From Tsukamurella conjunctivitidis (GTDB taxonomy: Bacteria > Actinomycetota > Actinomycetes > Mycobacteriales > Mycobacteriaceae), in the NCBI RefSeq assembly GCF_007858475.1, contig NZ_VIGX01000023.1, positions 1 to 56,954 of the forward strand: DNA of 56,954 nucleotides, read 5' to 3'. Position numbers and translations under genes: made by a program. Under the pieces are notes generated by a model. The model did not search any database and was not told the origin of the DNA. It saw only the letters and a list, made by a program, of their open reading frames with translations. Below, piece after piece: positions 42,556 to 56,954 of this stretch (its first letter is position 1; each line of letters begins with the position of its first letter).

Positions 42556-42653
42556 GATTCCTCCGATCGTCACCGGCAGGCGTGCAAGCGCCCTCAATCA
42601 TTGGACGCACCAGCTGGGTGATCGGTTCCCGGAACTTCGCCGAGAGCGACGAA

Positions 42654-42680
42654 GGGGCGCGACCGTGGCGGTCGCGCCCC
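42654..42680 (-). terminator. Terminator copied with the gnd fragment
   Basis: GGGGCGCGACC-GTGGC-GGTCGCGCCCC, an 11-bp perfect stem just after the gnd fragment stop (42696). The equivalent hairpin follows intact gnd at 54914-54940. Confidence 0.8.
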
Positions 42681-42695
42681 TCACGTCGTTCGTGC

Positions 42696-42851
42696 TCAGT
42701 CCGTCTGGACCTCGCTGCGGTCACCCGACCACAGCGTGTGGAACGTGCCCGACTTGTCGACGCGCTTGTAGGTGTGCGCGCCGAAGAAGTCACGCTGTCC
42801 CTGGACGAGCGCGGCTACAGGCGATCGGCAACTGCGCACGTCGAACTAGCT
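42696..42851 (-). pseudogene. 3' fragment of gnd (6-phosphogluconate dehydrogenase)
   Basis: The last ~38 codons are nearly identical to intact gnd (ALVQGQRDFFGAHTYKRVDK, then GTFHTLWSGDRSEVQTD and stop). Further upstream the reading decays: the Tyr codon of SYFD is a TAG stop, and the next eight codons are altered. Similarity ends at 42851, nine bases before the universal stress protein stop. Confidence 0.9.
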
Positions 42852-42859
42852 GTCGCCGG

Positions 42860-43222
42860 CTACCCCTGGGCGACCTTCACCGCCAGCACGGGGCATGTGG
42901 CGTCGAGCAGGATCCGCTGCGCCGACGAGCCGAACAGCAGCTTGCCGGTCGCGGTGCGGTGCTTGATGCCGATCACCAGGACGGAGGCGTCCACGGCGGT
43001 AGCGGCGTCGACGACGCCGCCCACCGGGTCCTTCTCGAACTCCTTCGGTCGTTCGATGCTGACGGTGAGGCCGCGTGCGGTGGCCTCCGAGACGTCCGGG
43101 GCGTCACCGTCGAGCAGGAAGACGACGATGGGCTCCCCGGGCCTGCGCTCCGCTTCGCGATAGGCGGCCTCCAATGCGGCGGCGCTCTCGGGAGTGGTCG
43201 AGTGGGCGACGAGAATCGTCAT
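42860..43222 (-). CDS. Universal stress protein (UspA family)
   Basis: 120 residues, single Usp domain: N-terminal strand MTILVAHSTTPESAAALEAA, the strand VIGIKHRTATGKLLFGSSAQRIL (ATP-binding loop) and CPVLAVKV at the end. It lies 2 bases after tctA and looks like the fourth gene of the tct operon. Usp genes often accompany transporters in actinobacteria, modulating them by nucleotide binding. Confidence 0.88.
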   Translation of the reverse strand: MTILVAHSTTPESAAALEAAYREAERRPGEPIVVFLLDGDAPDVSEATARGLTVSIERPKEFEKDPVGGVVDAATAVDASVLVIGIKHRTATGKLLFGSSAQRILLDATCPVLAVKVAQG

Positions 43223-43224
43223 GG

Positions 43225-44733
43225 TCAGATGTCCTTTCCGGTGCGGGCGGTGACGACCTGGCGCGCCTTGACGAGGAGCACGGCGATCAGCAGGCCGTAG
43301 AGGGTGATCGAGATCGGCGAGGAGACGAGGACGGAGTAGTCGCCGTCGGACGAGAGCAGGGCGTCCCGCAGGCTGGTCTCGGCGAGCGGGCCCAGCACCA
43401 TGCCGATGAGCAGCGGCGCGATGGGGATGTCGTAGCGCTTGAAGACGAAGGCCAGGAGACCGATCGCGAGGAACAGCAGCAGGTCGAACGTCGTCGGCGA
43501 GGTCGCGTAGATGCCGAGCCCGCAGAAGACCACGATGCTGCCGTACAGGTACGGAGCCGGGATCAGGAGGAGCTTCGCCCACAACTGCGCGAAGGGCAGG
43601 TTGATGATGAGCAGCACGACCATCGCTATGAAGAAGCTGGCGAGTAGTGCCCACACCAGATCCGGCGAGTTGTCGAACAGCAGCGGCCCCGGCTGGAGGC
43701 CGTACTGGCGGAAGGCGGCGAGCATGATCGCCGCGGTCGCCGAGACCGGGAGGCCCAGCGAGAGCAGCGCCCCCATCGCCATGCCGGTGGTCGAGTTGCC
43801 CGCGGCCTCGGGGGCGGCGAGGCCGCGCGGGGCGCCCTTGCCGAACATCGGGAACTTCCGGCGGCGGTCCAGTCGCCGTTCGACGTCGTAGGCGAGGAAG
43901 GTCGGGACCTCGGAGCCGCCGACCGGGATCACGCCGAAGGGCAGGCCGATCGCGGTGCCACGACCCCACGCCGGGAGCGCCTCCTTGAACTCCGCCTTGG
44001 AGAGCCAGGCGCGGCCGGCCTTGGCGCCGAGTGCCTTCGGGGCCGGATCGCGGCGAATCCGCGAGGCGACGATGATGATCTCGCCGAGGGCCAGCATGCC
44101 GACCGCGACGATCACCAGCGAGATCCCGTCGAAGAGGTTCGCCGAGCCGAACGTGAATCGCTCGGTGCCGGAGATCTGGTCGATGCCGACGGTCGCGAAC
44201 ATCAGGCCCATCACGAGTGAGGCGAGCCCCTTGAGTACCGATTCGGAGACCACCGAGGAGATCGCGCCGAAAGCCAGGAGCGAGAGGGCGAAGTACTCGG
44301 CCGGGCCGAACTTCGTGGAGAGCTCCGCCATGAACGGCGCGAGGAAGACCACGAGGATCGAGGCGATCATGCCGCCGATGAAGGCGCCGATCGCGGCGAT
44401 GGCGAGCGCCTGGGGCGCCTTGCCGTTCTTCGCCATCTGGTGGCCCTCGAAGGTCGACGCGATCGACGAGGCCTGCCCCGGCGTGTTCATGAGGATCGCC
44501 ATCGTCGAGTCGCCGAACAAGCCTCCGAAGTAGACGCCCGAGAACAGGATGAAGGCGGCGGTCGGGTTGAGCGCGAAGGTCATCGGGAGCAGCAGCGCCA
44601 CCGCCATCGAGGAGCCGAGGCCGGGCAGCACGCCCACCGCGGTGCCGATGAGACAGCCGATGACGACCCACATGAGGTTCTCGGGCGACAATGCGCCGCC
44701 GAACCCGTCGAGCAGTAGTCCGAACTGTTCCAT
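43225..44733 (-). CDS. tctA: Tripartite tricarboxylate transporter, large permease TctA
   Basis: 502 residues, about 11-12 membrane helices. Opening segment with GVLPGLGSSMAVALLLPMTF and the repeat GDSTMAILMNTPGQASS are TctA signatures, as is the middle FGVIPVGGSEVPTFLAYDVE and GNSTTGMAMGALLSLGLPVSAT. With TctB and TctC it takes up citrate-like or other carboxylates, driven by ion gradients. The start ATG is 44733; gene order tctC-tctB-tctA-usp is compact, with 2-base gaps or overlaps. Confidence 0.93.
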   Translation of the reverse strand: MEQFGLLLDGFGGALSPENLMWVVIGCLIGTAVGVLPGLGSSMAVALLLPMTFALNPTAAFILFSGVYFGGLFGDSTMAILMNTPGQASSIASTFEGHQMAKNGKAPQALAIAAIGAFIGGMIASILVVFLAPFMAELSTKFGPAEYFALSLLAFGAISSVVSESVLKGLASLVMGLMFATVGIDQISGTERFTFGSANLFDGISLVIVAVGMLALGEIIIVASRIRRDPAPKALGAKAGRAWLSKAEFKEALPAWGRGTAIGLPFGVIPVGGSEVPTFLAYDVERRLDRRRKFPMFGKGAPRGLAAPEAAGNSTTGMAMGALLSLGLPVSATAAIMLAAFRQYGLQPGPLLFDNSPDLVWALLASFFIAMVVLLIINLPFAQLWAKLLLIPAPYLYGSIVVFCGLGIYATSPTTFDLLLFLAIGLLAFVFKRYDIPIAPLLIGMVLGPLAETSLRDALLSSDGDYSVLVSSPISITLYGLLIAVLLVKARQVVTARTGKDI

Positions 44734-44735
44734 GG

Positions 44736-45248
44736 TCACAGCCCTCCCAGGATTCCGGACGGGAGCGGGACGTCCAGCAGGACGCCGAAGATCAGGAAGA
44801 CGAGGCTGGACAGCAGCAGCCCGGCGGAAACATCGAAGAGGGGCCGCTTGCTGTTGAACGCCCGCGTGACGCACCAGAACAGGAGCGCGGCGGCGAGGAT
44901 CCAGCCGAGGACGTCGAGGAGCACCGCGAAGGCGACGAGTCCACCGATGAGCCAGCCTGCGGCCGCCCAATCGGTGTAGGTGCGGAACCTCGTCTCCGAG
45001 CGCGCCGACTCGTCCGGGTTGCGGACGAAGTGCACCGCGAGCGCGGCGGCCAGCGCGTAGCCGACGATCGCGAGCAACCACGGGAAGAAGGTCGGTCCGG
45101 GGCTGTCGTCGGACTGCACGTCCATGGTGAGGTTGCCGATCACCACCAGCGTGCTGGCGATCGCGAGGATCGCCGGGACGACGAGCGCACCGAGACCGTT
45201 CCCCGTGCCCGGGGCCGCGGCGTGCGGCTCTTCTACCTGCGCAGTCAT
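44736..45248 (-). CDS. tctB: Tripartite tricarboxylate transporter, small subunit TctB
   Basis: 170 residues, four membrane helices with GPTFFPWLLAIVGYALA (second helix), DWAAAGWLIGGLVAFAVLLDVLGW and a C-terminal GVLLDVPLPSGI, as in TctB. Start overlaps the tctC stop; ends 2 bases before tctA. Confidence 0.9.
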   Translation of the reverse strand: MTAQVEEPHAAAPGTGNGLGALVVPAILAIASTLVVIGNLTMDVQSDDSPGPTFFPWLLAIVGYALAAALAVHFVRNPDESARSETRFRTYTDWAAAGWLIGGLVAFAVLLDVLGWILAAALLFWCVTRAFNSKRPLFDVSAGLLLSSLVFLIFGVLLDVPLPSGILGGL

Positions 45249-46285
45249 TTGCCCAGCTCCTTGTACAGGCCGGCGATGACGCGGTCCTCGTCGGCGATGA
45301 AGGTGGTCAGGTCAGGGCCCTCGAGCCAGGCGCGCGTCCACTTGTTGGTGTGCTCCGCATCGGCCCAGTCCCGGGTGCGCATGGCCTCGTCGAAGACATC
45401 GCGGATGTTCTTCACGTCCGACGGGGAGATGCCGGGCGGGCCGAACAGTGCGCGCCAGTTGGCGAGCGTCACGTCGTACCCGAGCTGGCGGAGCGTCGGG
45501 AAGTCCACGCCGTCGATCGGCTCCTTCGCGGCCATGGCGAGGCCCCTCAGGCGCCCGGACTGGATCTGGTCGATGAGGTCGGCGTAGCCCGAGAAGGCGG
45601 CCTTCGCGGTGCCGGTCACGAGCGCCTGCGCCACCTCGCCGCCGCCGGCCTTGGGGATGTAGGTGGTGTTCTTCGGGTCGATCCCGGCGGCCTTGGCGAA
45701 TTGGGCCATGACGAGCTGGTCGAAGCTGCCGCCGCCGGTGAACGGGATCGAGTGCGGGTTGCTCTTCCACGCCGCGACGAGGTCATCGACGGACTTGTAG
45801 GGTGAATTCGCGGGGACGACGAGAACGTCGTACTCCTCGAAGATCCGCGCGATCGGCGTCACGTCGGTCATGGTCACGGCGGACTTGGTCTGCTGGACGC
45901 CCGCGACGAGGCCGGTTCCGCCGACCATCACGACGTCGGCGCGGCCCGGCATCGAGTGCAGGCGGGAGAGGCCGATGGTGCCGGCCGCGCCGGGCACGTT
46001 GACGACCTGGATGTTGGTGGCGATCTTCTGCTCCCGCATGATCGCCTGCGCCTCGCGCATCACGAGGTCCCAGCCGCCACCCGCGCCCGCGGGGGCGATC
46101 AGCGTCGCCTTGTTGCGGATGTCGGCGGAGAGGCCGCCGCGTTGGAAGGAGAAGAAGACCGCCAGGGAAATCACCACGATCGCGACGACGGCGTAGATCG
46201 CCAGAGCGAGCATGCTGCGTTCTCCCGGTGGCGCTTCCGCCGGCCCTGCTTCGTCGGAGCTGTCCGTCACGACCCTGACCTCCAT
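45245..46285 (-). CDS. tctC: Tripartite tricarboxylate transporter, membrane-anchored binding protein TctC
   Basis: 346 residues. Instead of a cleavable signal it has ~25 cytoplasmic residues and one helix (about 26-48), so it is anchored. Then the Bug/TctC domain: LIAPAGAGGGWDLVMREAQAIM, VNVPGAAGTIGLSRL, GGGSFDQLVMAQFAKAAGIDP and YIPKAGGGEVAQALVTG. The ligand is probably a carboxylate. First gene of tctC-tctB-tctA-usp. A GCGC hairpin at 46366-46380 separates it from allophanate hydrolase. Confidence 0.9.
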   Translation of the reverse strand: MEVRVVTDSSDEAGPAEAPPGERSMLALAIYAVVAIVVISLAVFFSFQRGGLSADIRNKATLIAPAGAGGGWDLVMREAQAIMREQKIATNIQVVNVPGAAGTIGLSRLHSMPGRADVVMVGGTGLVAGVQQTKSAVTMTDVTPIARIFEEYDVLVVPANSPYKSVDDLVAAWKSNPHSIPFTGGGSFDQLVMAQFAKAAGIDPKNTTYIPKAGGGEVAQALVTGTAKAAFSGYADLIDQIQSGRLRGLAMAAKEPIDGVDFPTLRQLGYDVTLANWRALFGPPGISPSDVKNIRDVFDEAMRTRDWADAEHTNKWTRAWLEGPDLTTFIADEDRVIAGLYKELGK

Positions 46286-46365
46286 CGTCGAGCTGATGAG
46301 GCCGCCAGATTATCGCCGTGCCAACACCGTCTGACTCGAATGGAAAATCCAGGTAAAGAGCAGAA

Positions 46366-46380
46366 TGCGCGAAAAGCGCA
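46366..46380 (-). terminator. Short hairpin after allophanate hydrolase
   Basis: TGCGC-GAAAA-GCGCA, 46 bases after the stop of the guanidine-type operon on the minus strand. The stem is only 5 bp, so termination is weak or uncertain. Confidence 0.4.
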
Positions 46381-46425
46381 GAACTTCGTGGGCAGATCTC
46401 CTCGTTGACCCGCAGTCGATTCCGA

Positions 46426-48072
46426 TCAACGGTCGAGCCAGTACTCCACGTCGAGGTCGCGGGCGTCGCTCAGCGCCGAGGCCTGACAGCCGAACCCCAC
46501 CACGGCCCGGCCGTCGTCGAGATTCACGGACCCGAGGGTCATGGGCGCGGGCAGCCGGGCGAGGAACGTCCCCAGCGCGGCGGGTGGGAGTCGCCAGAGC
46601 TCGCCGCGAATGCCGCGGCCGTGTTCGGTGTCGTGGACGAGGCCGGGCTTGGGCGGCGTCGTCGCCAGTGCGACCAGCCGATATTCATCGGCCGTCCGGA
46701 TCTCCCCCGCCCAGTATGCGCCGAGCGACGTCAGCTCATGCTCGAGCGGCTGGTTGCGCAGGTGCGCCCCGAAGACCGCCAGGTCCACTGCACCGGCGAG
46801 ATCGAGGTTCCACGGCGTCACGGACGGCACGCCCGTGATTCGCGCCGCGAGCTCGAACGCGAGTCCGTCGTGTCCGGCGGGCGCGAGCAACGTGATCCCG
46901 AACTGCGCGCCGTCGGCGGTCTCCCCGGCCGGGACGGCGACGCCGCACAGGTCGAGGAGGTTGCAGAAGTTGGTGTACGTCCCCATCTCCGCGTTCACCC
47001 CGACCGGGTCGGCCGCCACCTCGGCGAGCGTCGGGTGCCGCGGCGCGGTGGGCACCATCAGGCCGACGAAGTCCTCGAAGAGCGCCGCGGCCCGTGCGGC
47101 GACGGCGCGGAGCTCGGCGTGGTCGGAGGCCAGACGGTGCGCGGGAACGTCGCCCGCGGCGCCGACGATGCCGGCCACCGTCGGGTCGAGGCCCGCCTCG
47201 TCGCCCGCCGCGATGACGAACTCCCCCACCGCGCTGTACCGCTCGGCGACCAGGGCACCGTCGTAGAGGAGCTTCGCGGCGGCGAGCAGCTCGGAGACGT
47301 CGACGGGCTTGACCCGCAGCCCGGCCGCCTCGGCGCGGGCGACGGCACCGTCGAAGGCCTCGCGCCAGGCGGCCGGCAGAGCGGGGAGCTCGGCGGGGAT
47401 CGCGAGCGCCGCGTCGGACGCGGCGGCGAACGGGGTGTCCGCAGCCCAGCGGCGGGTGCCCGTCGTGCCCATGACCGCCATCGCGCGGCCGGCCGTGACG
47501 AGGTCGCGGGCGAAGACCGTGACGCAGTCGTACGACGCACACGCGGGCACGACCCCGTCGGTGCTGACGGCGCCGATCGTCGGCTTGATGCCGACAATGC
47601 CCTGCAGCCCGGCGGGCACGCGGCCCGACCCCGCGGTATCGGTGCCGATCGCGATGTCGGCGTAGTCGAGGGCCACGGCGACGGCGGAGCCCGAGCTCGA
47701 TCCGCCGGAGATGCGGTCGGGTCGCCGGGAGTCGCGCACCGCGCCGTAGGGGCTCCGGGTGCCGACGAGGCCGGTGGCGAACTGGTCGAGGTTCGTCTTG
47801 CCGATCACCACCGCGCCGGCGGCGCGCAGGGCTGCGACGGCGGCGGCGTCGGCCACGGGACGGTAGGCGTAGCCGGGGCAGGCGGCGGTGGTCGGGAGGC
47901 CGGCCACGTCGACGTTGTCCTTGACCGCCAGGACCAGGCCCGCGAGCGGCCCGCCCGCAGCCAGGGACTCCACGTACTCGGCGGCGACCTCGGGCTCCGG
48001 CCGCAGGGCGAGGAAGACCTCGCAGCGATCGTCGGCGGCGATGCGCCGGTAGATGTCGGCGATGCGGGTCAT
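46426..48072 (-). CDS. atzF: Allophanate hydrolase (AtzF type)
   Basis: 548 residues. Amidase-signature domain with the Ser-cisSer-Lys triad: Lys in VKDNVDVAG, Ser in GGSSSGSAVAVAL and Ser in GTDTAGSGRVPAG. The C-terminal ~120-residue domain (GHDGLAFELAARITG and later TPPKPGLVHD) is the AtzF C-domain that decarboxylates N-carboxycarbamate. Converts allophanate to ammonia and CO2. ATGA overlap with the carboxyltransferase gene. Last step of the operon. Confidence 0.93.
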   Translation of the reverse strand: MTRIADIYRRIAADDRCEVFLALRPEPEVAAEYVESLAAGGPLAGLVLAVKDNVDVAGLPTTAACPGYAYRPVADAAAVAALRAAGAVVIGKTNLDQFATGLVGTRSPYGAVRDSRRPDRISGGSSSGSAVAVALDYADIAIGTDTAGSGRVPAGLQGIVGIKPTIGAVSTDGVVPACASYDCVTVFARDLVTAGRAMAVMGTTGTRRWAADTPFAAASDAALAIPAELPALPAAWREAFDGAVARAEAAGLRVKPVDVSELLAAAKLLYDGALVAERYSAVGEFVIAAGDEAGLDPTVAGIVGAAGDVPAHRLASDHAELRAVAARAAALFEDFVGLMVPTAPRHPTLAEVAADPVGVNAEMGTYTNFCNLLDLCGVAVPAGETADGAQFGITLLAPAGHDGLAFELAARITGVPSVTPWNLDLAGAVDLAVFGAHLRNQPLEHELTSLGAYWAGEIRTADEYRLVALATTPPKPGLVHDTEHGRGIRGELWRLPPAALGTFLARLPAPMTLGSVNLDDGRAVVGFGCQASALSDARDLDVEYWLDR

Positions 48073-50060
48073 GCTGCGCTCCTCGTGAACTCGCCGGCGG
48101 CCGCCCAGCGGCCGCGCTCCTCGGCGCGGGCGATCTCCATTGCGGACCGCACCCGGGCGATGTCGTCGGCCTCGCGGGCGAGGAACGCACGGTGCGCGGA
48201 GAGCGAGAAGGATCCGGGCGTGATGTCCACCGAACCGCGGCCGGCGGCCGTGTCGGCGCGCAGGTCCGCGAGCTCCTCGGTGCTCACGGGGTACCAGCTG
48301 ATCCGGTCGAAGTGCCGCAGCAGCCAGGGATGTTCGGGCTCGAAGCCACCTGCCGTAAGGGGGTGCCGGTGGTTCCACACCTGCGTGGTGCGACCGACGA
48401 ACTGGTAGCCACCGGGCCCTTCCATGCCGTAGATGCACAGGTAGGCGCCGCCGATGCCGACGGCGTTCTCCGGCGTCCAGGTGCGGGCCGGGTTGTACTT
48501 GGTGGTCACCAGCCGGTGGCGCGGGTCGAGCGGGACCGCCACGGGCGCACCGAGGTACACGTCCCCGAGGCCGAGCACGAGGTACGAGGCGTCGAAGACG
48601 ATCCGCTGCACGTCCTCGACCGAGCCGAGGCCGTTCATGCGGCGGATGAACTCGATGTTCCAGGGGCACCACGGGGCGTCGCCGCGGACGCCGAGGACGT
48701 AGCGCTCGATCGCCTCGCGCGTACTGGGGTCGTCCCAGGACAGCGGCAGGGAGACGGTGCGGCTGGGGACGATCATGTCGTCGGCGGCGGGGAGCTGCGA
48801 CTCCGCCTCGCGGATCCAGTCGAGGGCCGCGGGCTGCCCCAGCGCGGTCGGGTCGAACTTCACCTGCAGGCTGCGTACGCCGGCGGTGAGGTCGATCAGG
48901 CCGCGCGGCGACTCCGCCCGGAGCCTTTGCTCGAGCGCGTGGACGCGGGCACGGGACTCCAGGTCGAGCGTCATGGCGCCGTACTCGACGAGGATGTTGT
49001 CGTCACCCGACCGGCGGTAGGTGATGGTGGTCTCGCCGTCCGCGGTCATCGACCGGGCGAGGACGCCGTCGTCGGAGTCTCCCCCGGCGGACAGCACGAC
49101 GGGCAGGTTCGCACGGCGGGCCGTTCCGACAGTGCCGGGCGAGGCCGCCGCGGCCGCACGCAGGGGAACGAATCGCACGGCGTCGCCGGGGCGCAGCTGC
49201 CCCAGCTTCCAGCGGTCGGCCGTGGTCACCGTGACGGGGCAGACGAAACCGCCCAGGCTAGGACCGTCGGGGCCGAGCAGGATCGGGGTGTCGCCGGTGA
49301 AGTCGAGTGCGCCCACGGAGTAGGCGTTGTCGTGGATGTTCGACGGGTGCAGGCCGGCCTCGCCGCCGTCGGGGCGGGCCCACTCGGGCTTGGGCCCGAT
49401 GAGCCGGACGCCGGTGCGGTCGGAGTTGAAGTGCACCTCGTAGGCGGTGTCGTACAGGGTCGCGATGTCGGCGTCGGTGAAGTACTCGGGCGCGGAGTGC
49501 GGCCCGACGGTGACGGCGAGCTGCCACTGGCTGGTGAACGCGGGCACCTCGTCGTCGAGGATGCGGCGCGGGGCGGCGACAGCGCCGGTGCCGACGGGCA
49601 TTTCGTCGCCGGCGGCGAGGGTCCGGCCGTCGTGGCCGCCGAACCTACCCAGCGTGAACGTGGCGGCGCTGCCCAGATAGTCGGGCACCACCACGCCGCC
49701 GCGGACAGCGAGGTAGACGCGCATGCCGAGCGATCCGGTGGTGCCGATGGCGAGTTGCTGGCCGGAGTGGAGTTCGACCGGGCACCAGGTGGGGACGGGC
49801 GTCCCGTCGACGGTCACCGCAACAGGCGCGCCCGTGACCGCGACAGTGGTGGCCTCATCGACGGTGACGGCGAGGCCGCCGAGGGTGCACTCGAACCCCG
49901 GTGCACCCTCGTCGTTGCCGACGGCCAGGTTGGCGAGGCGGAAGGAGAGGTCGTCCATCGGGCCCGACGGCGGGACCCCGATCGACCAGTAGCCGGCGCG
50001 GCCGGGCCAGTCCTGCACGGTGGTCATCGGGCCGGGGCGGACGACGGTGAGGGTGGTCAT
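48069..50060 (-). CDS. Urea/guanidine carboxylase, carboxyltransferase domains only
   Basis: 663 residues covering AHS2 (PxpC-like: LTVVRPGPMTTVQDWPGRAG, GVPPSGPMDD at the N-terminus) and AHS1 (PxpB-like: NILVEYGAMTLDLESR, then the GVRSLQVKFDP block). Full urea or guanidine carboxylases are about 1200 residues and have biotin carboxylase in front and a biotinyl domain behind; both are absent here, and the protein ends EFTRSAA with no MKM biotin site. ATG 50060 overlaps the stop of the upstream DUF1989 gene and its stop overlaps atzF, so the gene is a complete operon member. Biotin carboxylase/BCCP would have to come from elsewhere. Confidence 0.88.
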   Translation of the reverse strand: MTTLTVVRPGPMTTVQDWPGRAGYWSIGVPPSGPMDDLSFRLANLAVGNDEGAPGFECTLGGLAVTVDEATTVAVTGAPVAVTVDGTPVPTWCPVELHSGQQLAIGTTGSLGMRVYLAVRGGVVVPDYLGSAATFTLGRFGGHDGRTLAAGDEMPVGTGAVAAPRRILDDEVPAFTSQWQLAVTVGPHSAPEYFTDADIATLYDTAYEVHFNSDRTGVRLIGPKPEWARPDGGEAGLHPSNIHDNAYSVGALDFTGDTPILLGPDGPSLGGFVCPVTVTTADRWKLGQLRPGDAVRFVPLRAAAAASPGTVGTARRANLPVVLSAGGDSDDGVLARSMTADGETTITYRRSGDDNILVEYGAMTLDLESRARVHALEQRLRAESPRGLIDLTAGVRSLQVKFDPTALGQPAALDWIREAESQLPAADDMIVPSRTVSLPLSWDDPSTREAIERYVLGVRGDAPWCPWNIEFIRRMNGLGSVEDVQRIVFDASYLVLGLGDVYLGAPVAVPLDPRHRLVTTKYNPARTWTPENAVGIGGAYLCIYGMEGPGGYQFVGRTTQVWNHRHPLTAGGFEPEHPWLLRHFDRISWYPVSTEELADLRADTAAGRGSVDITPGSFSLSAHRAFLAREADDIARVRSAMEIARAEERGRWAAAGEFTRSAA

Positions 50061-50656
50061 GCGGCGGCCTCCGAGATCTCGAGCTCGACGGCGGTGGGGT
50101 CGAAGCCGTTGCAGGGGTTGTTGATCTGCGGGCAGTTGGAGATCAGCACCAGGGTGTCGATCTCGGCGCGCAGCACCACTTTCTTCCCCGGAGCGGAGAG
50201 GCCGTCGACGATGCCTAGTGTGCCGTCGGGGTCGACGGGGACGTACATGTAGAAGTTGACGTTGCCCACCAGGTCGCGCTTGCCGAGGCCGTGCCGGCTG
50301 CCCTCGATGAGGAAGTTCTCGACGCAGGCGTGCTGATGTTTGGTGTGGTGGCCGTAGCGCAGCGTGTTGGACTCCTGGGAACAGGCGCCGCCGAGGGTGT
50401 CGTGATGACCGACCTCGTCGTCGACGATGGTCATCATGGGGCGCGACTCCTGATCGCGGATAACGGTTCCGGTGCCGAGGAAGATGCTGCGCTGGCCGAG
50501 GATCGTCTGCTGGGCGCTGTAGCGGATGGTGTGGTCGTGCGCGCCGTAGAAGAGGGTGTCGACGGCCTGGTTGCCGTGCAGGTCGGTCATGGTGAGGGTC
50601 TGGCCGGCGGGGACGATGCCCGACCAGGGCGCCCGCGGGGTGACGGTGGCGTTCAT
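50057..50656 (-). CDS. DUF1989 urea-carboxylase-associated protein (CgdB-like)
   Basis: 199 residues. DUF1989 blocks: LTMTDLHGNQAVDTLFYGA, MTIVDDEVGHHDTLGGACSQ, and NFYMYVPVDPDGTLGIVDGLS with a conserved Cys pair near the C-terminus (NCPQINNPCNGF). DUF1989 pairs next to carboxylases have been shown to be carboxyguanidine deiminase (CgdAB), which points to guanidine rather than urea as substrate. 24 bases after its partner gene; coupled to the carboxyltransferase. Confidence 0.88.
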   Translation of the reverse strand: MNATVTPRAPWSGIVPAGQTLTMTDLHGNQAVDTLFYGAHDHTIRYSAQQTILGQRSIFLGTGTVIRDQESRPMMTIVDDEVGHHDTLGGACSQESNTLRYGHHTKHQHACVENFLIEGSRHGLGKRDLVGNVNFYMYVPVDPDGTLGIVDGLSAPGKKVVLRAEIDTLVLISNCPQINNPCNGFDPTAVELEISEAAA

Positions 50657-50680
50657 GGGAGCTCCTTCTGGGGCTGGCGG

Positions 50681-51523
50681 TCAGTGCGCCGCGCGGTGGG
50701 CGTCTTCGGAATTGGCGACGGCGCGGAGGTATTCGGGGTCGGCGTCCGGGTCGGCGACGAGCGCGGCCAGATCGTCGTCGGCGCGCCAGGCCAGCACTTC
50801 GAGGAGGCCGGTGTCGAAGGTCGGCGACGGGTCGAGCGGGTGGGCGGTGTTCGCGACGGCGACGATGCACGGCAGGTGCAGCACCAGCTCCACGGCCTTC
50901 CCCGCCCCCGCGCTGCCGATGGAGGCGAGGGCACCGTCGGCCTCCACGGTGACGCCGTGGAAGAAGGAGACGGACGGGGCGACGTCGGTGGGCGTGAGGC
51001 CGTGCTTGGCGGCGGCGAGCACGAGCAGTTCCCGGCCGGCGGGGCTGTCCGAATGCGCCTCCCCCGCGCCGTACTTGGCGGTGTTGGTGGCGAGCGTGGT
51101 GGTGCCGCACAGGGCGTCGTGGTGGCCGGAGTCGTCGGCGACGACGGTGGCGAGTACGCGCCCCTGGTCGGAGAGCAGCGGGTGGCCCGCGCCGAGGTAG
51201 GCCTGCCACGGCACCTTGACGGTGTCGGCGACGTTGAGCCGTTCCCAGGGGGCGTCGGCGCGCCAGAGCAGGACGTTCGCGCAGGCGGTGCCGACGGTGT
51301 CGGTCAGGCGGATTCGGGTGCCGCGCGCCAGCACCTTCGACGTGTAGCGGCCGCCCGGGACGGTCTCCGCCCAGGTGAGAGCGGCGGCGGGCACGCCCGC
51401 GGGCGGGTCGGGCCAGGCGGTGGCGGGCACCGTCGGCATGCCTTCGACGCGGGTGTCGGCCTGGGCGCGGGCGTGCTCGCGGGCGCCCTGGGTGGTAGCG
51501 GTGGTCTCAGCGATGGCGGTCAC
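50681..51523 (-). CDS. DUF1989 urea-carboxylase-associated protein (CgdA-like)
   Basis: 280 residues: an N-terminal ~50-residue leader, then a DUF1989 domain with ARGTRIRLTDTVGTACANVLLW, VADDSGHHDALCGTT and VSFFHGVTVEADG. It probably forms a heteromer with the 199-residue partner. Starts at a GTG immediately (1 base) after the permease stop. Family knowledge (carboxyguanidine deiminase) is the basis for the substrate guess. Confidence 0.87.
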   Translation of the reverse strand: MTAIAETTATTQGAREHARAQADTRVEGMPTVPATAWPDPPAGVPAAALTWAETVPGGRYTSKVLARGTRIRLTDTVGTACANVLLWRADAPWERLNVADTVKVPWQAYLGAGHPLLSDQGRVLATVVADDSGHHDALCGTTTLATNTAKYGAGEAHSDSPAGRELLVLAAAKHGLTPTDVAPSVSFFHGVTVEADGALASIGSAGAGKAVELVLHLPCIVAVANTAHPLDPSPTFDTGLLEVLAWRADDDLAALVADPDADPEYLRAVANSEDAHRAAH

Positions 51524-51524
51524 G

Positions 51525-53069
51525 TCAGATGCCTTTCGTGGCGGGGAGGTTCGGGAGGACGGCGGCGACGGGGCGCGGGTGTGCGCGGCGCGGGAAGCAG
51601 GCGATGCCCGCGATGACGACGACCGCGATGGTGATCGGTCCGGCCCACTGCAGCAGCGGGGATTGGCCGGTGGGGTCGTAGATCTCGGCGCGCGGCCAGG
51701 CGAGGTTGATCACCATCGCTCCGCCGTAGAGGACGGCGGCGGCGTTGATCGGTACGCCCCAGCGGCCCAGGGTGAAGACCGGCTTTCCCTCGGAGTCGCG
51801 GACGGTGGCGCCGTGCGGCCATCCGCGGAGCCGCTGGTAGAGCATCGGCACCGTCACCGAGAGGTAGGCGAGGTAGATGAGCACGATGCACACGCTGGCA
51901 AGGGTGGCGAAGATCGCGGGATTACCGACGTTCACCAGCAGGACGGCGACGCAGAGGATTCCGATGAGCACTGCCGGGGCGACCGGCGCCTGGGTGCGCG
52001 GGTTCACGCGGGAGAGCTGCTCCGAGAACGGGAGCCGGTGATCGCGGGCCATGGAGAAGATGAGGCGGCTGCACGCGGTCTGGATCGCGAGGGTGCAGAT
52101 GAACACGGCCACGGCGACGTCAGCCAGGAGGACCTTGCCCCAGAACGAGCCGAGGACGGACTGGAGGACGTAGGGCAGGCCGCCGGCGGCGAGCTCCTCC
52201 CCCAGTGTCGGCGCGGCCATGAGGGCGGTGATCAGCATGAGGCCGCCGCCGACCGCCGAGGCCGTGAGCGCGAATCGGATGGTACGCGGGGCGACCCGGC
52301 GGGGGTTGACGGTCTCCTCGGCGAGCTCGCCCGCCGAGCCGAAGCCGACCATGACGTACGCGGCCATGAGACCGGAGACGATGAACGCGCCGAGGTAGCC
52401 GCCCGAGCCGGTCGTGGTCGCGTGGGAGGTGTCGAAGACGACCTGGGGCCCGCGCTGGGCGTGCATCGCGAGGGCACCGATGACGGCGACCACGCCGACG
52501 AGCTCGCAGGTGACGCCGATGGCGTTGATGCGGCTCATCCAGTGCACGCCGATGCAGTTGATCGTGGTGGTGACGATGAGGAGGACCGTGCCGAGCAGGA
52601 CGGCGTTGGCCGCACCGCTGGAGCTGGTGAGGGACGGGTCGTCGCCGATGAACTGGAAGCCCGACCACACGGTGGGCAGGACCACCTGCAGCGCGATCGC
52701 GGCCGCCGCGGCGGTGACGATCTGCGCGAGGATCATGAACCAGCCACCGAACCAGCCGATCACCTCCCCGCCGAGGCGCCGCGACCACTGGTAGATCGCG
52801 CCGGAGATCGGGTAGCGGGCGGCCATCTCGGCGAAGCACAGAGCCACGAGGAACTGGCCGAGGTAGACGAGGGGCCAGGTCCAGAAGAAGGCGGCCCCGC
52901 CGAGCGAGTAGCCCAGGCCGAACAGCTGGAAGATGGTGGTGAGGATGGACACGAAGGAGAACCCGGCGGCGAACGACGCGAACGTCCCGAGCGAGCGGCG
53001 CAGCTGCGGCTGGTAGCCGAGCTGGGCCAGATCATCCGAATCATGGTGTCGGGGTTGGGTGGTTGTCAT
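51525..53069 (-). CDS. APC-superfamily permease (amino-acid/guanidine-type)
   Basis: 514 residues, 12 membrane helices. First helices with FAAGFSFVSILTTIFQLFGLG and then AARYPISGAIYQWSRRLGG are those of the amino acid-polyamine-organocation family found next to urea-carboxylase genes. It presumably imports the operon substrate (guanidine, urea or an amine). First gene of the five-gene operon; an 18-bp palindrome lies 24 bases upstream of its ATG. Confidence 0.9.
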   Translation of the reverse strand: MTTTQPRHHDSDDLAQLGYQPQLRRSLGTFASFAAGFSFVSILTTIFQLFGLGYSLGGAAFFWTWPLVYLGQFLVALCFAEMAARYPISGAIYQWSRRLGGEVIGWFGGWFMILAQIVTAAAAAIALQVVLPTVWSGFQFIGDDPSLTSSSGAANAVLLGTVLLIVTTTINCIGVHWMSRINAIGVTCELVGVVAVIGALAMHAQRGPQVVFDTSHATTTGSGGYLGAFIVSGLMAAYVMVGFGSAGELAEETVNPRRVAPRTIRFALTASAVGGGLMLITALMAAPTLGEELAAGGLPYVLQSVLGSFWGKVLLADVAVAVFICTLAIQTACSRLIFSMARDHRLPFSEQLSRVNPRTQAPVAPAVLIGILCVAVLLVNVGNPAIFATLASVCIVLIYLAYLSVTVPMLYQRLRGWPHGATVRDSEGKPVFTLGRWGVPINAAAVLYGGAMVINLAWPRAEIYDPTGQSPLLQWAGPITIAVVVIAGIACFPRRAHPRPVAAVLPNLPATKGI

Positions 53070-53092
53070 GCGGCGGCTTCCCTGTCGGAGCT

Positions 53093-53110
53093 CTATCTGT
53101 CAGTTGATAG
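53093..53110. promoter_or_regulatory. Operator-like palindrome between permease and TetR genes
   Basis: CTATC-TGTCAGTT-GATAG: 5-bp perfect arms in the 114-base divergent gap, 24 bases from the permease start and 74 from the TetR start. Fits a TetR-family operator for the adjacent regulator. Confidence 0.55.
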
Positions 53111-53183
53111 AAAACCGTTCTCCGGGGTCACCCGGATTGCCCCGCGGTAAGGACTGGGAAAACCAGCGCTACGAACATGTTTC

Positions 53184-53849
53184 GTGGCGGGTAGCCTGGC
53201 CGCTGTGACGGAGGCGAACGGCGGGGGCGGCGGTGGAGCCGGCGGCGGGGCGGAAACCGCAGGTAGGCGGGGGCGCCCGCGCGCGAACGATCCGCGCCGG
53301 CCCGGCGCTACGGCCGTCGACGAGATCCTCGACGCCGCCGCCGAGCTGTTCACCCAGCGTGGGTACGCGGCCACCTCGACGCGGCAGATCGCCGAGGCCG
53401 TGGGCATCCGGCAGGCCTCGCTGTACCACTACTTCCCCACCAAGGGCGAGATCCTGACCGCGCTGTTGGAGGCGACGGTGCAGGCGCCACTCGCGCTCGC
53501 ACGCTCGGTCGTAGCCGCCGACGGGGCGCCTCTCGACCGGCTACTGCAATTGGCCCGGTCCGACGCCGGCCAGTTGCTGGCGGCGCAGTACAACCTGGGC
53601 GCGCTCTACCACCTGCCCGAGCTGGCGGCCGACGAGTTCGCCGAGTTCCGCGCCGACCGGGCGGAGCTGGCCTCGCATTACCGTTCCCTGGCCGCTGCTG
53701 TTCTGGGCGACGACAGCGACCCGCGCGTGCTCCTGCCGTTCCGGCTCGTGGAGTCCGTCATCGGCCTGCGGTCCGACGTTGCCGTCGGGCTTAACGGTGA
53801 TGACCTGGTCGACGCGATCTGCCGGGCGATTCAGCAGGTGCTGGCGTAG
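53184..53849 (+). CDS. TetR-family regulator, divergent from the permease operon
   Basis: 221 residues. A Gly/Arg-rich N-terminal tail (to about 45) precedes the HTH (about 46-90: VDEILDAAAELFTQRGYAAT, then TRQIAEAVGIRQASLYHYF). The C-terminal domain is a ligand pocket of unknown specificity. Starts at GTG 53184; a second GTG at 53205 is possible. Divergent placement suggests it represses the permease-carboxylase operon. Confidence 0.88.
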   Translation: MAGSLAAVTEANGGGGGGAGGGAETAGRRGRPRANDPRRPGATAVDEILDAAAELFTQRGYAATSTRQIAEAVGIRQASLYHYFPTKGEILTALLEATVQAPLALARSVVAADGAPLDRLLQLARSDAGQLLAAQYNLGALYHLPELAADEFAEFRADRAELASHYRSLAAAVLGDDSDPRVLLPFRLVESVIGLRSDVAVGLNGDDLVDAICRAIQQVLA

Positions 53850-53856
53850 ACGTCGG

Positions 53857-54444
53857 TCACGGCGCCTTCGAGATCGCCAGCGTCGCCCACTCGATCGCCT
53901 TGTTGCACTCGGCCACCAAGCCAGGCGATGGCTTCGCATCCTTACCGTCCGCATGGAACACCGAATGGATAATCGCGCCCTCCGACATGAACGAGGCGAA
54001 ACACCCGCTGTCGCGCTCGGTCGTCACAATTACAGTTCGCCCGCTGATGGTTCGATCTCGTTGCCACGGGCGACGGCTCTGCTTCGCCTTGTACACCTCG
54101 ACCGAGACTTCGTTGCCCAACTCCTGGCTGAAGTAGCCCGTGCGGTCGGGCGATTGCCACTGACAACCGCGATAGTTCGGAGAGTCCGAAATCATCACGT
54201 CTTGCAGAGTCGCCGGATCCGCACCCAACGCACGCATCTCTTCAGCGGAGTATGCAGTGCACGGCTCGAAGCTGGTCCCATTGTTCCTCTCGTTCGTACG
54301 TTCCTTGTACTTCGGAACGAACGGCAGCGGGCGGGCGCTCACGCCTGCAGCACGCCCCTCAGGGACTGCTTGCCCCTCGACAGACACTGCGCAAGCGGAG
54401 AGCAGCATCGCGATCGTGACTAGGCCCAACGCTTTCAGCGCCAT
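53857..54444 (-). CDS. DUF3558-type lipoprotein, right copy
   Basis: 195 residues. Lipobox MLLSAC (Cys near 18) and the same cysteine pattern as its paralog (EPCTAYSAEEM, RGCQWQS, SGCFASF, AECNKAIEWA). The C-terminal residues ECNKAIEWATLAISKAP are identical in both copies. Overlaps the upstream helical gene by 10 bases. Function unknown; surface lipoprotein. Confidence 0.85.
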   Translation of the reverse strand: MALKALGLVTIAMLLSACAVSVEGQAVPEGRAAGVSARPLPFVPKYKERTNERNNGTSFEPCTAYSAEEMRALGADPATLQDVMISDSPNYRGCQWQSPDRTGYFSQELGNEVSVEVYKAKQSRRPWQRDRTISGRTVIVTTERDSGCFASFMSEGAIIHSVFHADGKDAKPSPGLVAECNKAIEWATLAISKAP

Positions 54445-54815
54445 CTGACCTTTCCGATCCCCTCAGCGTTCTCCAGCTCAGTGTCGCCGATATCCTTGGC
54501 GATCTGGCGCAACGCAGCGGCGATGACTTCCGCCTCTTGCACCTCGCGCGTGAAATTCTGTACCACCGAGTTTTCATGGTCGTGCACTGCGACCCCGATG
54601 TTGTACGTCGCCGCCCGTCCCTCCACCGTGTCCCCGAGATAGTTGGTGCGACCAACGTGATCGAGCGAGCGGATCGCCACTCTCAGCCGTTCGGCGTGGC
54701 GATCGTGCGCCTTGGCCAGTTCCTCGATTGGGTCACCATCGAGAACCATGTTCGGGCGGTCGGCGATCCGCTGCTCCGCCTCCTGGCGAATCTTGTCCGC
54801 GTCAGGATTCCCCAT
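54435..54815 (-). CDS. Small helical protein, right copy of duplicated pair
   Basis: 126 residues, closest relative the protein at 42178-42555. ATG 54815 is preceded by the same GGAGGAATC ribosome site. Conserved Asp/Arg-rich opening (NPDADKIRQEAEQRIADRPN) and IAAALRQIAKDIGDTELENAEGI near the end. No known family; soluble and helical. Lies 100 bases after the gnd terminator, so it probably has its own promoter in 54816-54913. Confidence 0.8.
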   Translation of the reverse strand: MGNPDADKIRQEAEQRIADRPNMVLDGDPIEELAKAHDRHAERLRVAIRSLDHVGRTNYLGDTVEGRAATYNIGVAVHDHENSVVQNFTREVQEAEVIAAALRQIAKDIGDTELENAEGIGKVRWR

Positions 54816-54913
54816 GATTCCTCCGATCGTCACCGGCAGGAGAGCACGCGCCCTCATCAATTGGACGCACCAGCTCGGCGATCGGTTCCCCCCTCGTTCA
54901 CCGAACACGGAAG

Positions 54914-54940
54914 GGGGCGCGACCGTGGCGGCCGCGCCCC
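54914..54940 (-). terminator. Terminator of gnd
   Basis: 11-bp stem (one mismatch) GGGGCGCGACC-GTGGC-GGCCGCGCCCC, 16 bases after the gnd stop. Confidence 0.8.
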
Positions 54941-54955
54941 TCACGTCGTCCGTGC

Positions 54956-56398
54956 TCAGTCCGTCTGGACCTCGCTGCGGTCACCCGACCACAGCGTGTG
55001 GAAGGTGCCCGGCTTGTCGACGCGCTTGTAGGTGTGCGCGCCGAAGAAGTCGCGCTGCCCCTGGACGAGCGCGGCGGGCAGGCGATCGACATTAAGCGAG
55101 TCGAAGTAGCTCAAGGCGGTCGCGAAGCCCGGAACCGGGACGGCCGCCTGGGTGGCGGTGATGACGACGCGGCGCCAGGCATCCTCGCCGTCGCGGATGG
55201 CCTGGGCGAAGTACGGGGCCTCGAGAAGGGTCGCGAGGTTCGGGTTCGTCTCGTAGGCGTCGGCGAGGACGTTGAGGAACTGCGCGCGGATGATGCAACC
55301 GCCGCGCCAGATCTTGGCGACGGCGCCCTTGTCGATGTTCCAGCCGTACTTCTCCGCGCCGGCGATGATCGCGTCGAAGCCCTGCGCGTAGGCGACGATC
55401 TTGGAGGCGTAGAGGGCCTTGGCGACGTCGTCGACGAAGGAATCGTCGACCCGCGGTGCGGTGGGGCGCTCGATGCCGAGCGCGCGGACCGCGTCGCGCT
55501 GGTTCCGCTTGGACGAGACGGCGCGGCCGAAGACGGCCTCGGCGACGCCGCCGACCGGCACGCCCAGGTCGAGCGCGGTCTGCACGGTCCAGACGCCGGT
55601 GCCCTTGCTGCCTGCCTGGTCGGTGACGATATCGACGAAGGGCTTGCCCGTCTCCGCGTCGACGTGCTTGAGGATGTCGATGGTGATCTCGATGAGGTAG
55701 CTGTTGAGCGGCCCCTCGTTCCACGTGGCGAAGAGGTCGGAGATCTGGGCGGGCGTGTAGCCGGCGACGTTGCGCAGCAGGTCGTAGGCCTCGCCGATGA
55801 GCTCCATATCGGCGTACTCGATGCCGTTGTGGATCATCTTGACGAAGTGGCCGGCGCCGTCGGTGCCCACGTGGGTCACGCACGGCTCCCCCTCGGCGAC
55901 CGCGGCGATCGACGCGAGGATCGGGCCGAGGGTCTCGTAGGACTCCACGGTGCCGCCGGGCATGATCGACGGGCCCTTGAGCGCGCCCTCCTCGCCGCCG
56001 GAGATGCCGGCGCCGACGAAGTGGATGCCGGTCGGGGCGATCTTCGCCTCGCGGGCGATGGTGTCATGGAAGTTGGCGTTGCCGCCGTCGACGATGATGT
56101 CGCCCGGCTCGAACCGCTCCTTGAGCTGCTCGATCACCGCATCAGTGCCCGCGCCGGCCTGCACCATGATGATCGCGGTGCGCGGCTTCGCCAGGCTCGC
56201 GACGAACTCGTCGATGGTGTCGCTGGCAACGAAGTTCGCCTCGGGGTGGTTCTTGGCGACCTCGTGCGTCTTCTCCGGCGAGCGGTTGTAGATCGCGACG
56301 GTGTTGCCCTCCCGGGACGCCAGGTTGCGGGCCAGGTTGGAGCCCATCACCGCCATCCCCACCACTCCGATGTTCGCCTTGGCATCGTTGCTGCTCAT
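54956..56398 (-). CDS. gnd: 6-phosphogluconate dehydrogenase (decarboxylating)
   Basis: 480 residues, full length. NADP-binding GVVGMAVMGSNLARNLASR, GAGISGGEEGALKGPSIMPGG (substrate loop) and the signature with DQAGSKGTGVWTVQTALDLG, where Ser replaces the usual Gln and Val the usual Lys; the catalytic Lys and Glu positions elsewhere look normal. Oxidises 6-phosphogluconate to ribulose-5-phosphate with NADPH production. Its 3' end is duplicated at 42696-42851. Confidence 0.95.
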   Translation of the reverse strand: MSSNDAKANIGVVGMAVMGSNLARNLASREGNTVAIYNRSPEKTHEVAKNHPEANFVASDTIDEFVASLAKPRTAIIMVQAGAGTDAVIEQLKERFEPGDIIVDGGNANFHDTIAREAKIAPTGIHFVGAGISGGEEGALKGPSIMPGGTVESYETLGPILASIAAVAEGEPCVTHVGTDGAGHFVKMIHNGIEYADMELIGEAYDLLRNVAGYTPAQISDLFATWNEGPLNSYLIEITIDILKHVDAETGKPFVDIVTDQAGSKGTGVWTVQTALDLGVPVGGVAEAVFGRAVSSKRNQRDAVRALGIERPTAPRVDDSFVDDVAKALYASKIVAYAQGFDAIIAGAEKYGWNIDKGAVAKIWRGGCIIRAQFLNVLADAYETNPNLATLLEAPYFAQAIRDGEDAWRRVVITATQAAVPVPGFATALSYFDSLNVDRLPAALVQGQRDFFGAHTYKRVDKPGTFHTLWSGDRSEVQTD

Positions 56399-56531
56399 CG
56401 CTTGTTCGTCCCTCTTCCTCGTGGTGGTTCACACTCGGCCCCTACGTTACGTCCCCATGCCCGACGGTGCCCCCACCTCACCCGCGAGTTCCTACTGTCA
56501 CCCTCTCCGTGAGGGTTTGTACCCTTGAGCG

Positions 56532-56826
56532 GTGCCAAATAGGTCGCAGCCGGAATCCTGGGCATCCAGTCCTGCGCGGCGCCGCAATATGCAGGCCAAT
56601 CGATCACAAGACACCAAGCCTGAACTCCGTGTCCGCCGCGCTCTTCACGCACTCGGCCTCCGCTACCGAGTGGGGATCGCCCCCGAACCGACGCTGCGCC
56701 GACGGGCCGACATCGTCTTCACCCGTGCGCGCGTCGCTGTGTTCATCGACGGTTGCTTCTGGCACGGCTGCCCGGAACATGGGCGCTCAACGTTCAATCA
56801 CAACGCCGACTACTGGCCTGAAAAGA
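56532..56826 (+). pseudogene. vsr: Very short patch repair endonuclease Vsr, truncated by an IS
   Basis: The N-terminal ~95 residues match Vsr (MQANRSQDTKPELRVRRALHALG, ADIVFTRARVAVFIDGCFWHGCPEHG), including the conserved Asp in the D-I-V-F strand and the FIDGCFWHGC zinc/active-site region. After ADYWPEK the frame changes to unrelated residues and stops at 56873, about 40 residues short. The sequence then becomes an IS3-family end. Vsr repairs T:G mismatches at 5-methylcytosine sites, so a cytosine methylase should have been nearby; none is seen in the window. Start GTG 56532; ATG 56589 is an alternative. Confidence 0.85.
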
Positions 56827-56954
56827 TGGGACTGCTGCACGATCGGGTGACAGTGTCGGTGTCATGCCGCTGAGGCGGCTGTGTTGATGATCGTCTCGTA
56901 TTCGACGGGCGTCAACCGGCCGAGGCGGACCTGACGGCGTCGGCGGTGGTAGGT
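56827..56954 (-). mobile_element. End of an IS3-family insertion sequence (runs off right edge)
   Basis: The change from Vsr to foreign sequence is near 56827-56830, and TGGGACTGCTGCACGATCGG (56827-56846) is the probable terminal inverted repeat beginning with TG as in the IS3 family. Only one end is visible, so the repeat and target duplication cannot be confirmed. Confidence 0.7.
56862..56954 (-). CDS. IS3-family transposase (OrfB), C-terminal 30 residues
   Basis: Reverse-strand reading ends with YHRRRRQVRLGRLTPVEYE then ETIINTAASAA and stop. The R-L-G-x-L-T-P-x-E-Y-E motif is the standard C-terminus of IS3-group integrase-type transposases. The rest lies beyond the window. Confidence 0.85.
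   Translation of the reverse strand, partial: TYHRRRRQVRLGRLTPVEYETIINTAASAA

What the first reader, a model, noticed from the sequence alone, without database searches (positions are those of the whole stretch)
46426..53069. Guanidine/urea carboxylase operon whose carboxylase lacks biotin carboxylase and biotinyl domains
Permease, two DUF1989 proteins (carboxyguanidine deiminase type), a 663-residue AHS2-AHS1 carboxyltransferase and allophanate hydrolase are tightly coupled, but the usual ~1200-residue carboxylase is reduced to its middle. Either a separate biotin carboxylase/BCCP (for example from the acyl-CoA carboxylase family) is shared, giving a split guanidine carboxylase, or the carboxyltransferase does a different reaction. 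No guanidine riboswitch is present; a TetR seems to control it instead.
Basis: partly seen in the sequence, partly recalled or inferred. Interest (0 to 1): 0.7.

Follow-up and report, generated by a model that had tools for sequence, protein, structure and literature searches.

The report
Guanidine carboxylase lacking its biotin half
A nitrogen-scavenging operon in Tsukamurella and many relatives of Mycobacterium encodes only the carboxyl-transferring middle of a guanidine carboxylase, so the enzyme probably borrows its biotin-loading half from another carboxylase in the cell, which would be a new way to build this enzyme.

Summary
A tight minus-strand operon encodes permease, UAAP1, UAAP2, a 663-aa carboxyltransferase (CT) and allophanate hydrolase; the CT covers positions 448-1113 of the 1201-position urea carboxylase model, without biotin carboxylase or carrier. 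It is no frame error: 79 of 80 named relatives are equally CT-only, the 80th (Arthrobacter) is full-length. The group is nested among full-length enzymes, so the biotin parts were probably lost. The active site was not: the guanidine-type Asp, second Asp and catalytic Lys are kept in 86 of 86 rows, with dN far below dS. No dedicated biotin carboxylase turned up in the genomes tested; an AccA3-type subunit matches in 50 of 50. Best reading: a split guanidine carboxylase fed in trans, most likely by AccA3. The partner is inferred, not shown. The TetR is AmtR-like: CTNTC-N4-GANAG lies upstream in 76 of 79 promoter regions. A published AmtR/GlnR target operon of the same gene content was read there as urea carboxylase. 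The split form was not described in the papers searched.

The parts
51525..53069 (-). APC-type permease, TIGR03428 'permease, urea carboxylase system' (514 aa)
   Evidence: 820.2 bits, cut-off 740.45
50681..51523 (-). UAAP1-type DUF1989 protein (280 aa), putative carboxyguanidine deiminase subunit
   Evidence: TIGR03425, 287.6 bits, cut-off 205.95; deiminase role by homology, not tested
50057..50656 (-). UAAP2-type DUF1989 protein (199 aa), putative carboxyguanidine deiminase subunit
   Evidence: TIGR03424, 312.7 bits, cut-off 284.7; deiminase role by homology, not tested
48069..50060 (-). CT-only guanidine carboxylase (663 aa): CT_A_B + CT_C_D, no BC, no BCCP; Asp253, Asp500, Lys521 at K. lactis 1330, 1584, 1605
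46426..48072 (-). allophanate hydrolase (548 aa), amidase + AH_C domains; ATG start chosen by me at the ATGA overlap
   Evidence: TIGR02713, 597 bits, cut-off 511.05
53097..53110 (-). AmtR-type box CTATC-AACT-GACAG upstream of the permease
   Evidence: pattern CTNTCNNNNGANAG in 76 of 79 promoter regions, 0.2 expected from base shuffles; position read
53184..53849 (+). TetR-family regulator, AmtR-like by position, conservation and operator (221 aa)
   Evidence: PF00440; AmtR-like gene in 67 of the 79 CT-only loci (36 + 17 + 14); literature

Best explanation
The operon is a guanidine-assimilation pathway whose carboxylase has become a two-component enzyme. The permease brings in guanidine (inferred). 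A BC-BCCP subunit encoded elsewhere uses ATP and bicarbonate to make carboxybiotin, and its swinging BCCP delivers this to the stand-alone CT, which carboxylates guanidine (inferred). UAAP1/UAAP2 deiminate carboxyguanidine to allophanate and the allophanate hydrolase releases ammonia and CO2 (by homology to the known pathway). The most likely donor is AccA3, the alpha subunit that Actinobacteria already share among several acyl-CoA carboxylases; AccA1 or AccA2 are less likely. AmtR represses the operon and GlnR probably activates it (from published work on M. smegmatis). Shown here: the CT-only architecture, its conservation, its nesting among full-length enzymes, the intact active site and the AmtR-type box. 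Inferred: trans carboxybiotin supply and the identity of the donor. Within the confidence below, AccA3 specifically is about 0.45.
For: CT-only in 79 of 80 named loci; no BC hit in the CT frame and little room for one: UAAP2-to-CT gap at most 315 nt in 79. Nested among full-length enzymes, sister to the Arthrobacter full-length one (SH-aLRT 99); one single clade of the sampled BC-less CTs rejected, p-AU 0.002 (quick tree). Guanidine-type Asp (Kl1330), Asp Kl1584 and catalytic Lys Kl1605 in 86 of 86 rows; of 205 positions invariant in 12 full-length enzymes, 178 are the same in at least 97% of the 86 rows. dN 0.007-0.063 against dS 0.16-0.54 in 6 pairs. In 6 of 7 window-group genomes the best BC is only 48-52% identical to the urea-carboxylase type, as in 7 same-family genomes lacking the operon (49-53%); a full-length enzyme is present in only 6 of 50. 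AccA3-type match in 50 of 50, 74-98% identity, one of them cut by a contig end. Williamsia CHRR-6 (draft genome) shows only three BC genes, closest to AccA3, AccA1 and AccA2, so pyruvate carboxylase, the long-chain enzyme and a dedicated BC seem not needed there. AccA3 of the window's genome has BC and BCCP but no match to the methylcrotonyl-type BT domain that its AccA1 carries. G219 has no BC gene found and its CT has lost Asp and Lys. Sharing of AccA3 among carboxylases is published (abstract and passages).
Against: No tool here shows contact or activity. AccA-type BCs are also present in genomes without the operon, so co-occurrence names no partner. I found no example of this CT fold taking carboxybiotin from an AccA-type alpha subunit. 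The related PxpB/PxpC are assumed to phosphorylate their substrate with ATP (introduction passage). Eight of 30 genomes keep UAAP1-UAAP2-CT without a full allophanate hydrolase match at E <= 1e-60, although two of them (G095, G007) have AH_C-domain hits in other frames; this does not suit a simple three-step pathway. In M. smegmatis urea and amino acids did not release AmtR; guanidine is not named among the ligands there.
Confidence: 0.65

Rival explanations
1. The CT works without biotin. Like PxpB/PxpC it uses ATP directly to activate its substrate (or uses carboxyphosphate or another CO2 donor), and UAAP1/UAAP2 act on that product.
For: Loss of BC and BCCP together; PxpB/PxpC precedent; BC-less CTs form more than one lineage; G219 keeps a CT-like protein in a genome in which no BC was found.
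Against: The active site is that of full-length biotin enzymes and the window CT scores far below the PxpC cut-off (139.8 against 500). In G219, where no BC was found, the catalytic Asp and Lys are replaced, unlike in the window's group.
Confidence: 0.17
2. The BC-BCCP donor is a full-length urea carboxylase encoded elsewhere in the genome.
For: 6 of 50 genomes have one; G021 has both forms.
Against: 44 of 50 show none, nor does the window's genome.
Confidence: 0.04
3. The CT uses its site on another substrate (urea, methylguanidine or a related compound), still with a borrowed BC-BCCP.
For: Published annotation calls it urea carboxylase. The substrate is inferred from one residue and the neighbouring UAAP genes only.
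Against: Asp at Kl1330 in 86 of 86. The three full-length enzymes with Asn there (L060-L062) have no UAAP genes detected in the fetched stretches, while the nine Asp-type ones do.
Confidence: 0.1
4. The CT gene is a relic without carboxylase function.
For: Loss of two domains; the gene is missing from many relatives (95 of 121 genomes of the order sample have no match at E <= 1e-100).
Against: Strong purifying selection, invariant active site, conserved operator.
Confidence: 0.04

Closest known systems
Bacterial guanidine carboxylase (urea carboxylase family, TIGR02712) with carboxyguanidine deiminase and allophanate hydrolase
   Same: CT domain, guanidine-type Asp, catalytic Asp and Lys, neighbouring UAAP1, UAAP2, permease and allophanate hydrolase
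   Different: No BC and no BCCP; no riboswitch found; AmtR-type box instead
AmtR/GlnR-controlled 'urea carboxylase' operon of Actinobacteria (Tsukamurella paurometabola Tpau_1590-1595, M. smegmatis msmeg_2184-2189)
   Same: Same gene set and regulator, by the gene table; very probably the same operon (section read)
   Different: Their sequences were not compared here. The section read calls the functions of urea carboxylase, amidase, urf1 and urf2 'highly speculative' and does not mention a missing BC/BCCP or guanidine
Actinobacterial acyl-CoA carboxylases with shared alpha subunit AccA3
   Same: A separate CT protein served by a shared BC-BCCP subunit (proposed here by analogy)
   Different: Their CT is of the acyl-CoA type; the window CT matches only CT_A_B and CT_C_D in Pfam
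5-oxoprolinase PxpABC
   Same: PxpC and PxpB correspond to CT_A_B and CT_C_D as separate proteins; one cluster here has a lone AccC-type BC beside PxpC-like and PxpB-like genes
   Different: No PxpA among the window operon proteins; different substrate; scores below the PxpB and PxpC cut-offs

Membership tests
Urea/guanidine carboxylase (TIGR02712) | Biotin carboxylase domain | tested here: not met
   Absent from protein and window
Urea/guanidine carboxylase (TIGR02712) | C-terminal biotinyl carrier domain | tested here: not met
Urea/guanidine carboxylase (TIGR02712) | CT domain, subdomains A-D | tested here: met
   PF02626 308.9 bits, PF02682 130.9 bits; matches K. lactis enzyme 3va7/5i8i, E 9e-166 and 2e-165
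Urea/guanidine carboxylase (TIGR02712) | Model cut-off 1303.85 bits | tested here: not met
   942.8 bits
Guanidine carboxylase | Asp at K. lactis 1330 and 1584 (criterion in PMC11410670, passages) | tested here: met
   Asp253 and Asp500 of the window CT; 86 of 86 rows
Guanidine carboxylase | General-base Lys1605 (PMC5770610, passages) | tested here: met
   Lys521; 86 of 86 rows
Guanidine carboxylase | Biotin- and ATP-dependent carboxylation of guanidine | not testable with these tools
   needs enzyme assay
5-oxoprolinase PxpABC | PxpC/PxpB equivalog scores and neighbouring PxpA | tested here: not met
   PxpC 139.8 against 500, PxpB 31.9 against 145.55; no PxpA among the operon proteins scanned; the broader domain model TIGR00724 (5-oxoprolinase/urea amidolyase family) is passed, 285.8 against 230.2
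Acyl-CoA carboxylase beta subunit | Acyl-CoA-type CT domain (PF01039) | tested here: not met
   Only CT_A_B and CT_C_D found
AmtR regulon | AmtR gene and operator upstream of the operon | tested here: met
   Box in 76 of 79 promoter regions; the name AmtR rests on operator, position and literature, since no NCBIfam TetR model passed its cut-off

The most novel reading that the evidence does not exclude
A biotin-free guanidine carboxylase: the CT alone, or with UAAP1/UAAP2, carboxylates or otherwise ATP-activates guanidine without any carboxybiotin, which would make the CT fold a catalyst in its own right in nitrogen metabolism.
Probability: 0.13. Interest if true: 0.85.

Novelty: new variant of a known kind. 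Interest (0 to 1): 0.62.

Why it matters
In the papers seen here urea and guanidine carboxylases are single chains carrying BC, CT and BCCP. A lineage-wide form with only the CT, still under strict selection, says that this carboxylase can run as a separable module, probably on a shared biotin subunit. If the donor is AccA3, nitrogen scavenging would draw on the same carboxybiotin pool as fatty and mycolic acid synthesis. It would also move the annotation of the AmtR/GlnR-controlled 'urea amidolyase' operon of mycobacteria and rhodococci towards guanidine use, and it is directly testable with purified proteins.

Tried and rejected
Frame error or assembly error: rejected, 79 of 80 named loci agree. 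A BC elsewhere in the window: none found. A dedicated urea-carboxylase-type BC elsewhere: six of seven window-group genomes had only BCs of 52% identity or less to that type; the seventh (G021) has a full-length enzyme. An extra BC gene in operon-bearing genomes: not seen; 4-7 matches in the 7 window-group genomes against 4-6 in 7 same-family genomes without the operon (hits split in pieces inflate G021 and others). A lone carrier gene near the operon: none; the nine biotin/lipoyl-domain matches of the window's genome lie on other contigs. Naming the donor from presence alone: failed, because AccA-type BCs are also in genomes without the operon. All BC-less CTs as one group: rejected, with the cautions that the tree is a quick one, that L228 is a long branch and that I had seen a first tree before the test; L064-L068, L229 and L230 form another lineage and L228 stands alone. 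PxpBC-type enzyme: rejected on scores.

Kinds of operon were counted by phmmer score only.
Full report
What is there. On the minus strand the window carries permease (53069-51525), UAAP1 (51523-50681), UAAP2 (50656-50057), a 663-aa carboxyltransferase (50060-48069) and allophanate hydrolase (48072-46426), with a divergent TetR gene at 53184-53849. The 663-aa protein shows CT_A_B and CT_C_D only in Pfam; it covers positions 448-1113 of the 1201-position urea carboxylase model and the CT part of the K. lactis enzymes of PDB 3va7 and 5i8i. No BC or BCCP piece was found in the window, and no guanidine riboswitch in 42000-56954. The nearest named relative is Tsukamurella asaccharolytica (95% identity), so the window is from Tsukamurella or close to it.

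The truncation is general. Of 80 loci fetched from named species genomes (which kept the best 80 of 549 encoding stretches), 79 are CT-only and one, Arthrobacter, is full-length. They cover Tsukamurella, Williamsia, Gordonia, Mycobacterium/Mycolicibacterium, Rhodococcus/Rhodococcoides, Nocardia, Dietzia, Skermania, Prescottella, Antrihabitans and Corynebacterium sputi, plus one record labelled Kitasatospora. By operon: 47 have permease, UAAP1, UAAP2 and allophanate hydrolase (36 of them with an AmtR-like gene in the stretch), 17 lack the adjacent hydrolase, 14 lack hydrolase and permease, and 1 is a contig fragment. One locus, L166, has part of an AccA-like BC at its far edge, about 6 kb beyond AmtR. 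In an even sample of the order, 26 of 121 genomes have a CT match at E <= 1e-100; among 20 stretches read from these, full-length and CT-only forms both occur. In a sample of the phylum (396 genomes, two candidates scored in each, capped list) 7 genomes pass the full-length cut-off and 10, the window's genome included, show a CT-only-type match, G021 being in both sets.

It looks like a loss. In a tree of 38 CT sequences (18 of 86 of the window's group, 12 full-length, 8 others) the window's group is one clade (98), sister to the Arthrobacter full-length enzyme (99), inside a set of full-length enzymes; the tree needs three changes between full and CT-only, and one clade of all CT-only rows is rejected (p-AU 0.002). 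The tree is a quick one, its root is a midpoint root, and L228 is a long branch; the other BC-less lineages could be old or derived.

The active site is intact. PMC11410670 (passages) requires Asp at K. lactis 1584 and separates guanidine from urea carboxylases by Asp at 1330; PMC5770610 (passages) names Lys1605 as the probable general base. The window CT has Asp253, Asp500 and Lys521 at these places, and so do 86 of 86 rows of its group. Among 12 full-length enzymes, 9 have Asp and 3 Asn at 1330; the three with Asn (L060-L062) showed no UAAP genes in the stretches fetched, the nine others did. Of 205 positions invariant in the 12 full-length enzymes, 178 are the same in at least 97% and 198 in at least 80% of the 86 rows. 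Six close pairs give dN 0.007-0.063 and dS 0.16-0.54. A structure prediction of the CT was too poor to use (mean pLDDT 51.2).

Where could carboxybiotin come from? The window's genome has six BC genes: a pyruvate carboxylase-length one, AccA3, AccA1 beside a carboxyltransferase and an acyl-CoA dehydrogenase-like gene, an AccA2-like gene, a long-chain-type enzyme and a single-chain carboxylase; these names are mine, from length, neighbours and recall, and only the domains of three were scanned. Its only other CT_A_B gene is a 552-aa frame elsewhere. In 6 of 7 window-group genomes the best BC is 48-52% identical to the urea-carboxylase type, against 49-53% in 7 same-family genomes without the operon; the seventh, G021, also has a full-length enzyme. 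A full-length enzyme is present in 6 of 50 named genomes. The 29 CT-only genomes have 3-8 BC matches; Williamsia CHRR-6, a draft genome, has three, closest to AccA3 (86%), AccA1 (58%) and AccA2 (56%). An AccA3-type match is found in 50 of 50. AccA3 is known to be shared by several acyl-CoA carboxylases (abstract and passages of PMC4064979 and PMC11001197). AccA1 of the window's genome and of G095 carry a BT domain of the methylcrotonyl-CoA type, AccA3 does not match it; this suits a dedicated role for AccA1 and leaves AccA3 as the likelier generalist, which is inference.

A contrast helps. G219 carries a distant CT-only protein (L228), and no BC gene was found in its genome (94% complete); its residues at 1330, 1584 and 1605 are Ala, Glu and Arg. 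Where no BC was found the catalytic residues are gone; the CT-only genomes that keep them and were searched all have BCs. G219 is one case only.

Regulation. The pattern CTNTC-N4-GANAG lies upstream of the first gene in 76 of 79 promoter regions (the window and 78 loci), 0.2 expected from base shuffles; GTNAC-N6-GNNAC, a loose GlnR-like pattern, in 41 of 79 (1.4 expected), and the tighter GNNAC-N6-GNAACA in 13 of 79 (0.5 expected). PMC4222082 (section on the AmtR regulon read; passages) lists this gene set in ten Actinobacteria including Tsukamurella paurometabola, shows AmtR binding upstream of msmeg_2184 and dependence on GlnR, and treats the gene as urea carboxylase of speculative function. 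PMC3662644 (passages) reports GlnR binding there.

Against the simple picture. Eight of 30 genomes searched, all with the AmtR-UAAP1-UAAP2-CT form, have no allophanate hydrolase match at E <= 1e-60; two of them, G095 and G007, have AH_C-domain hits in other frames. Either another amidase serves, or allophanate falls apart to urea and is used by urease (recalled chemistry, not tested), or the pathway differs there.

Novelty. Searches for urea carboxylase with biotin carboxylase domain, urea carboxylase with guanidine and carboxyltransferase, guanidine carboxylase with carboxyguanidine deiminase, AmtR with urea and guanidine, urea carboxylase or guanidine with these genera and DUF1989 terms gave listings, capped where many papers matched; neither the listings nor the passages read describe a CT-only form. 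PMC3199775 (section 8 read; passages) mentions BC-CT-BCCP enzymes, their fungal fusions and a separate pair of CT-like genes. Most subscription papers are not in this library.

Noticed in passing
L064-L068, L229, L230: A second BC-less CT lineage in similar operons has Met (5 of 5) or Ile (2 of 2) at the urea/guanidine specificity position, neither Asp nor Asn, but keeps Asp1584 and Lys1605: probably another substrate.
   Followed up: partly
L228 (G219): A CT-only protein in a genome in which no biotin carboxylase gene was found (94% complete); catalytic Asp and Lys replaced.
   Followed up: partly
L054, L055, L170, L171, L173, L179, L185, L186: Eight genomes (six named Mycobacterium or Mycolicibacterium, two unnamed) keep AmtR, UAAP1, UAAP2 and CT but have no full allophanate hydrolase match; the two unnamed ones have AH_C-domain hits in other frames.
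   Followed up: partly
L112: A record labelled Kitasatospora arboriphila carries a Williamsia-like operon (73% CT identity); the record may be mislabelled or contaminated.
   Followed up: no
window 42860-46285: TctC (46285-45245), TctB (45248-44736) and TctA (within 45081-43225) of a tripartite tricarboxylate transporter and a universal stress protein domain (within 43243-42860) lie downstream of the operon on the same strand; TctC also in T. asaccharolytica L110.
   Followed up: partly
L194 (G051): PxpA, PxpB-like and PxpC-like genes stand beside a lone AccC-type biotin carboxylase, suggesting that some Pxp-type CT homologues may have a BC partner.
   Followed up: partly
L018 6104-9421: The window's genome encodes a single-chain carboxylase with BC, weak BCCP and acyl-CoA-type CT domains (frame of 1105 aa) beside an AMP-binding (acyl-CoA synthetase-like) gene.
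   Followed up: partly
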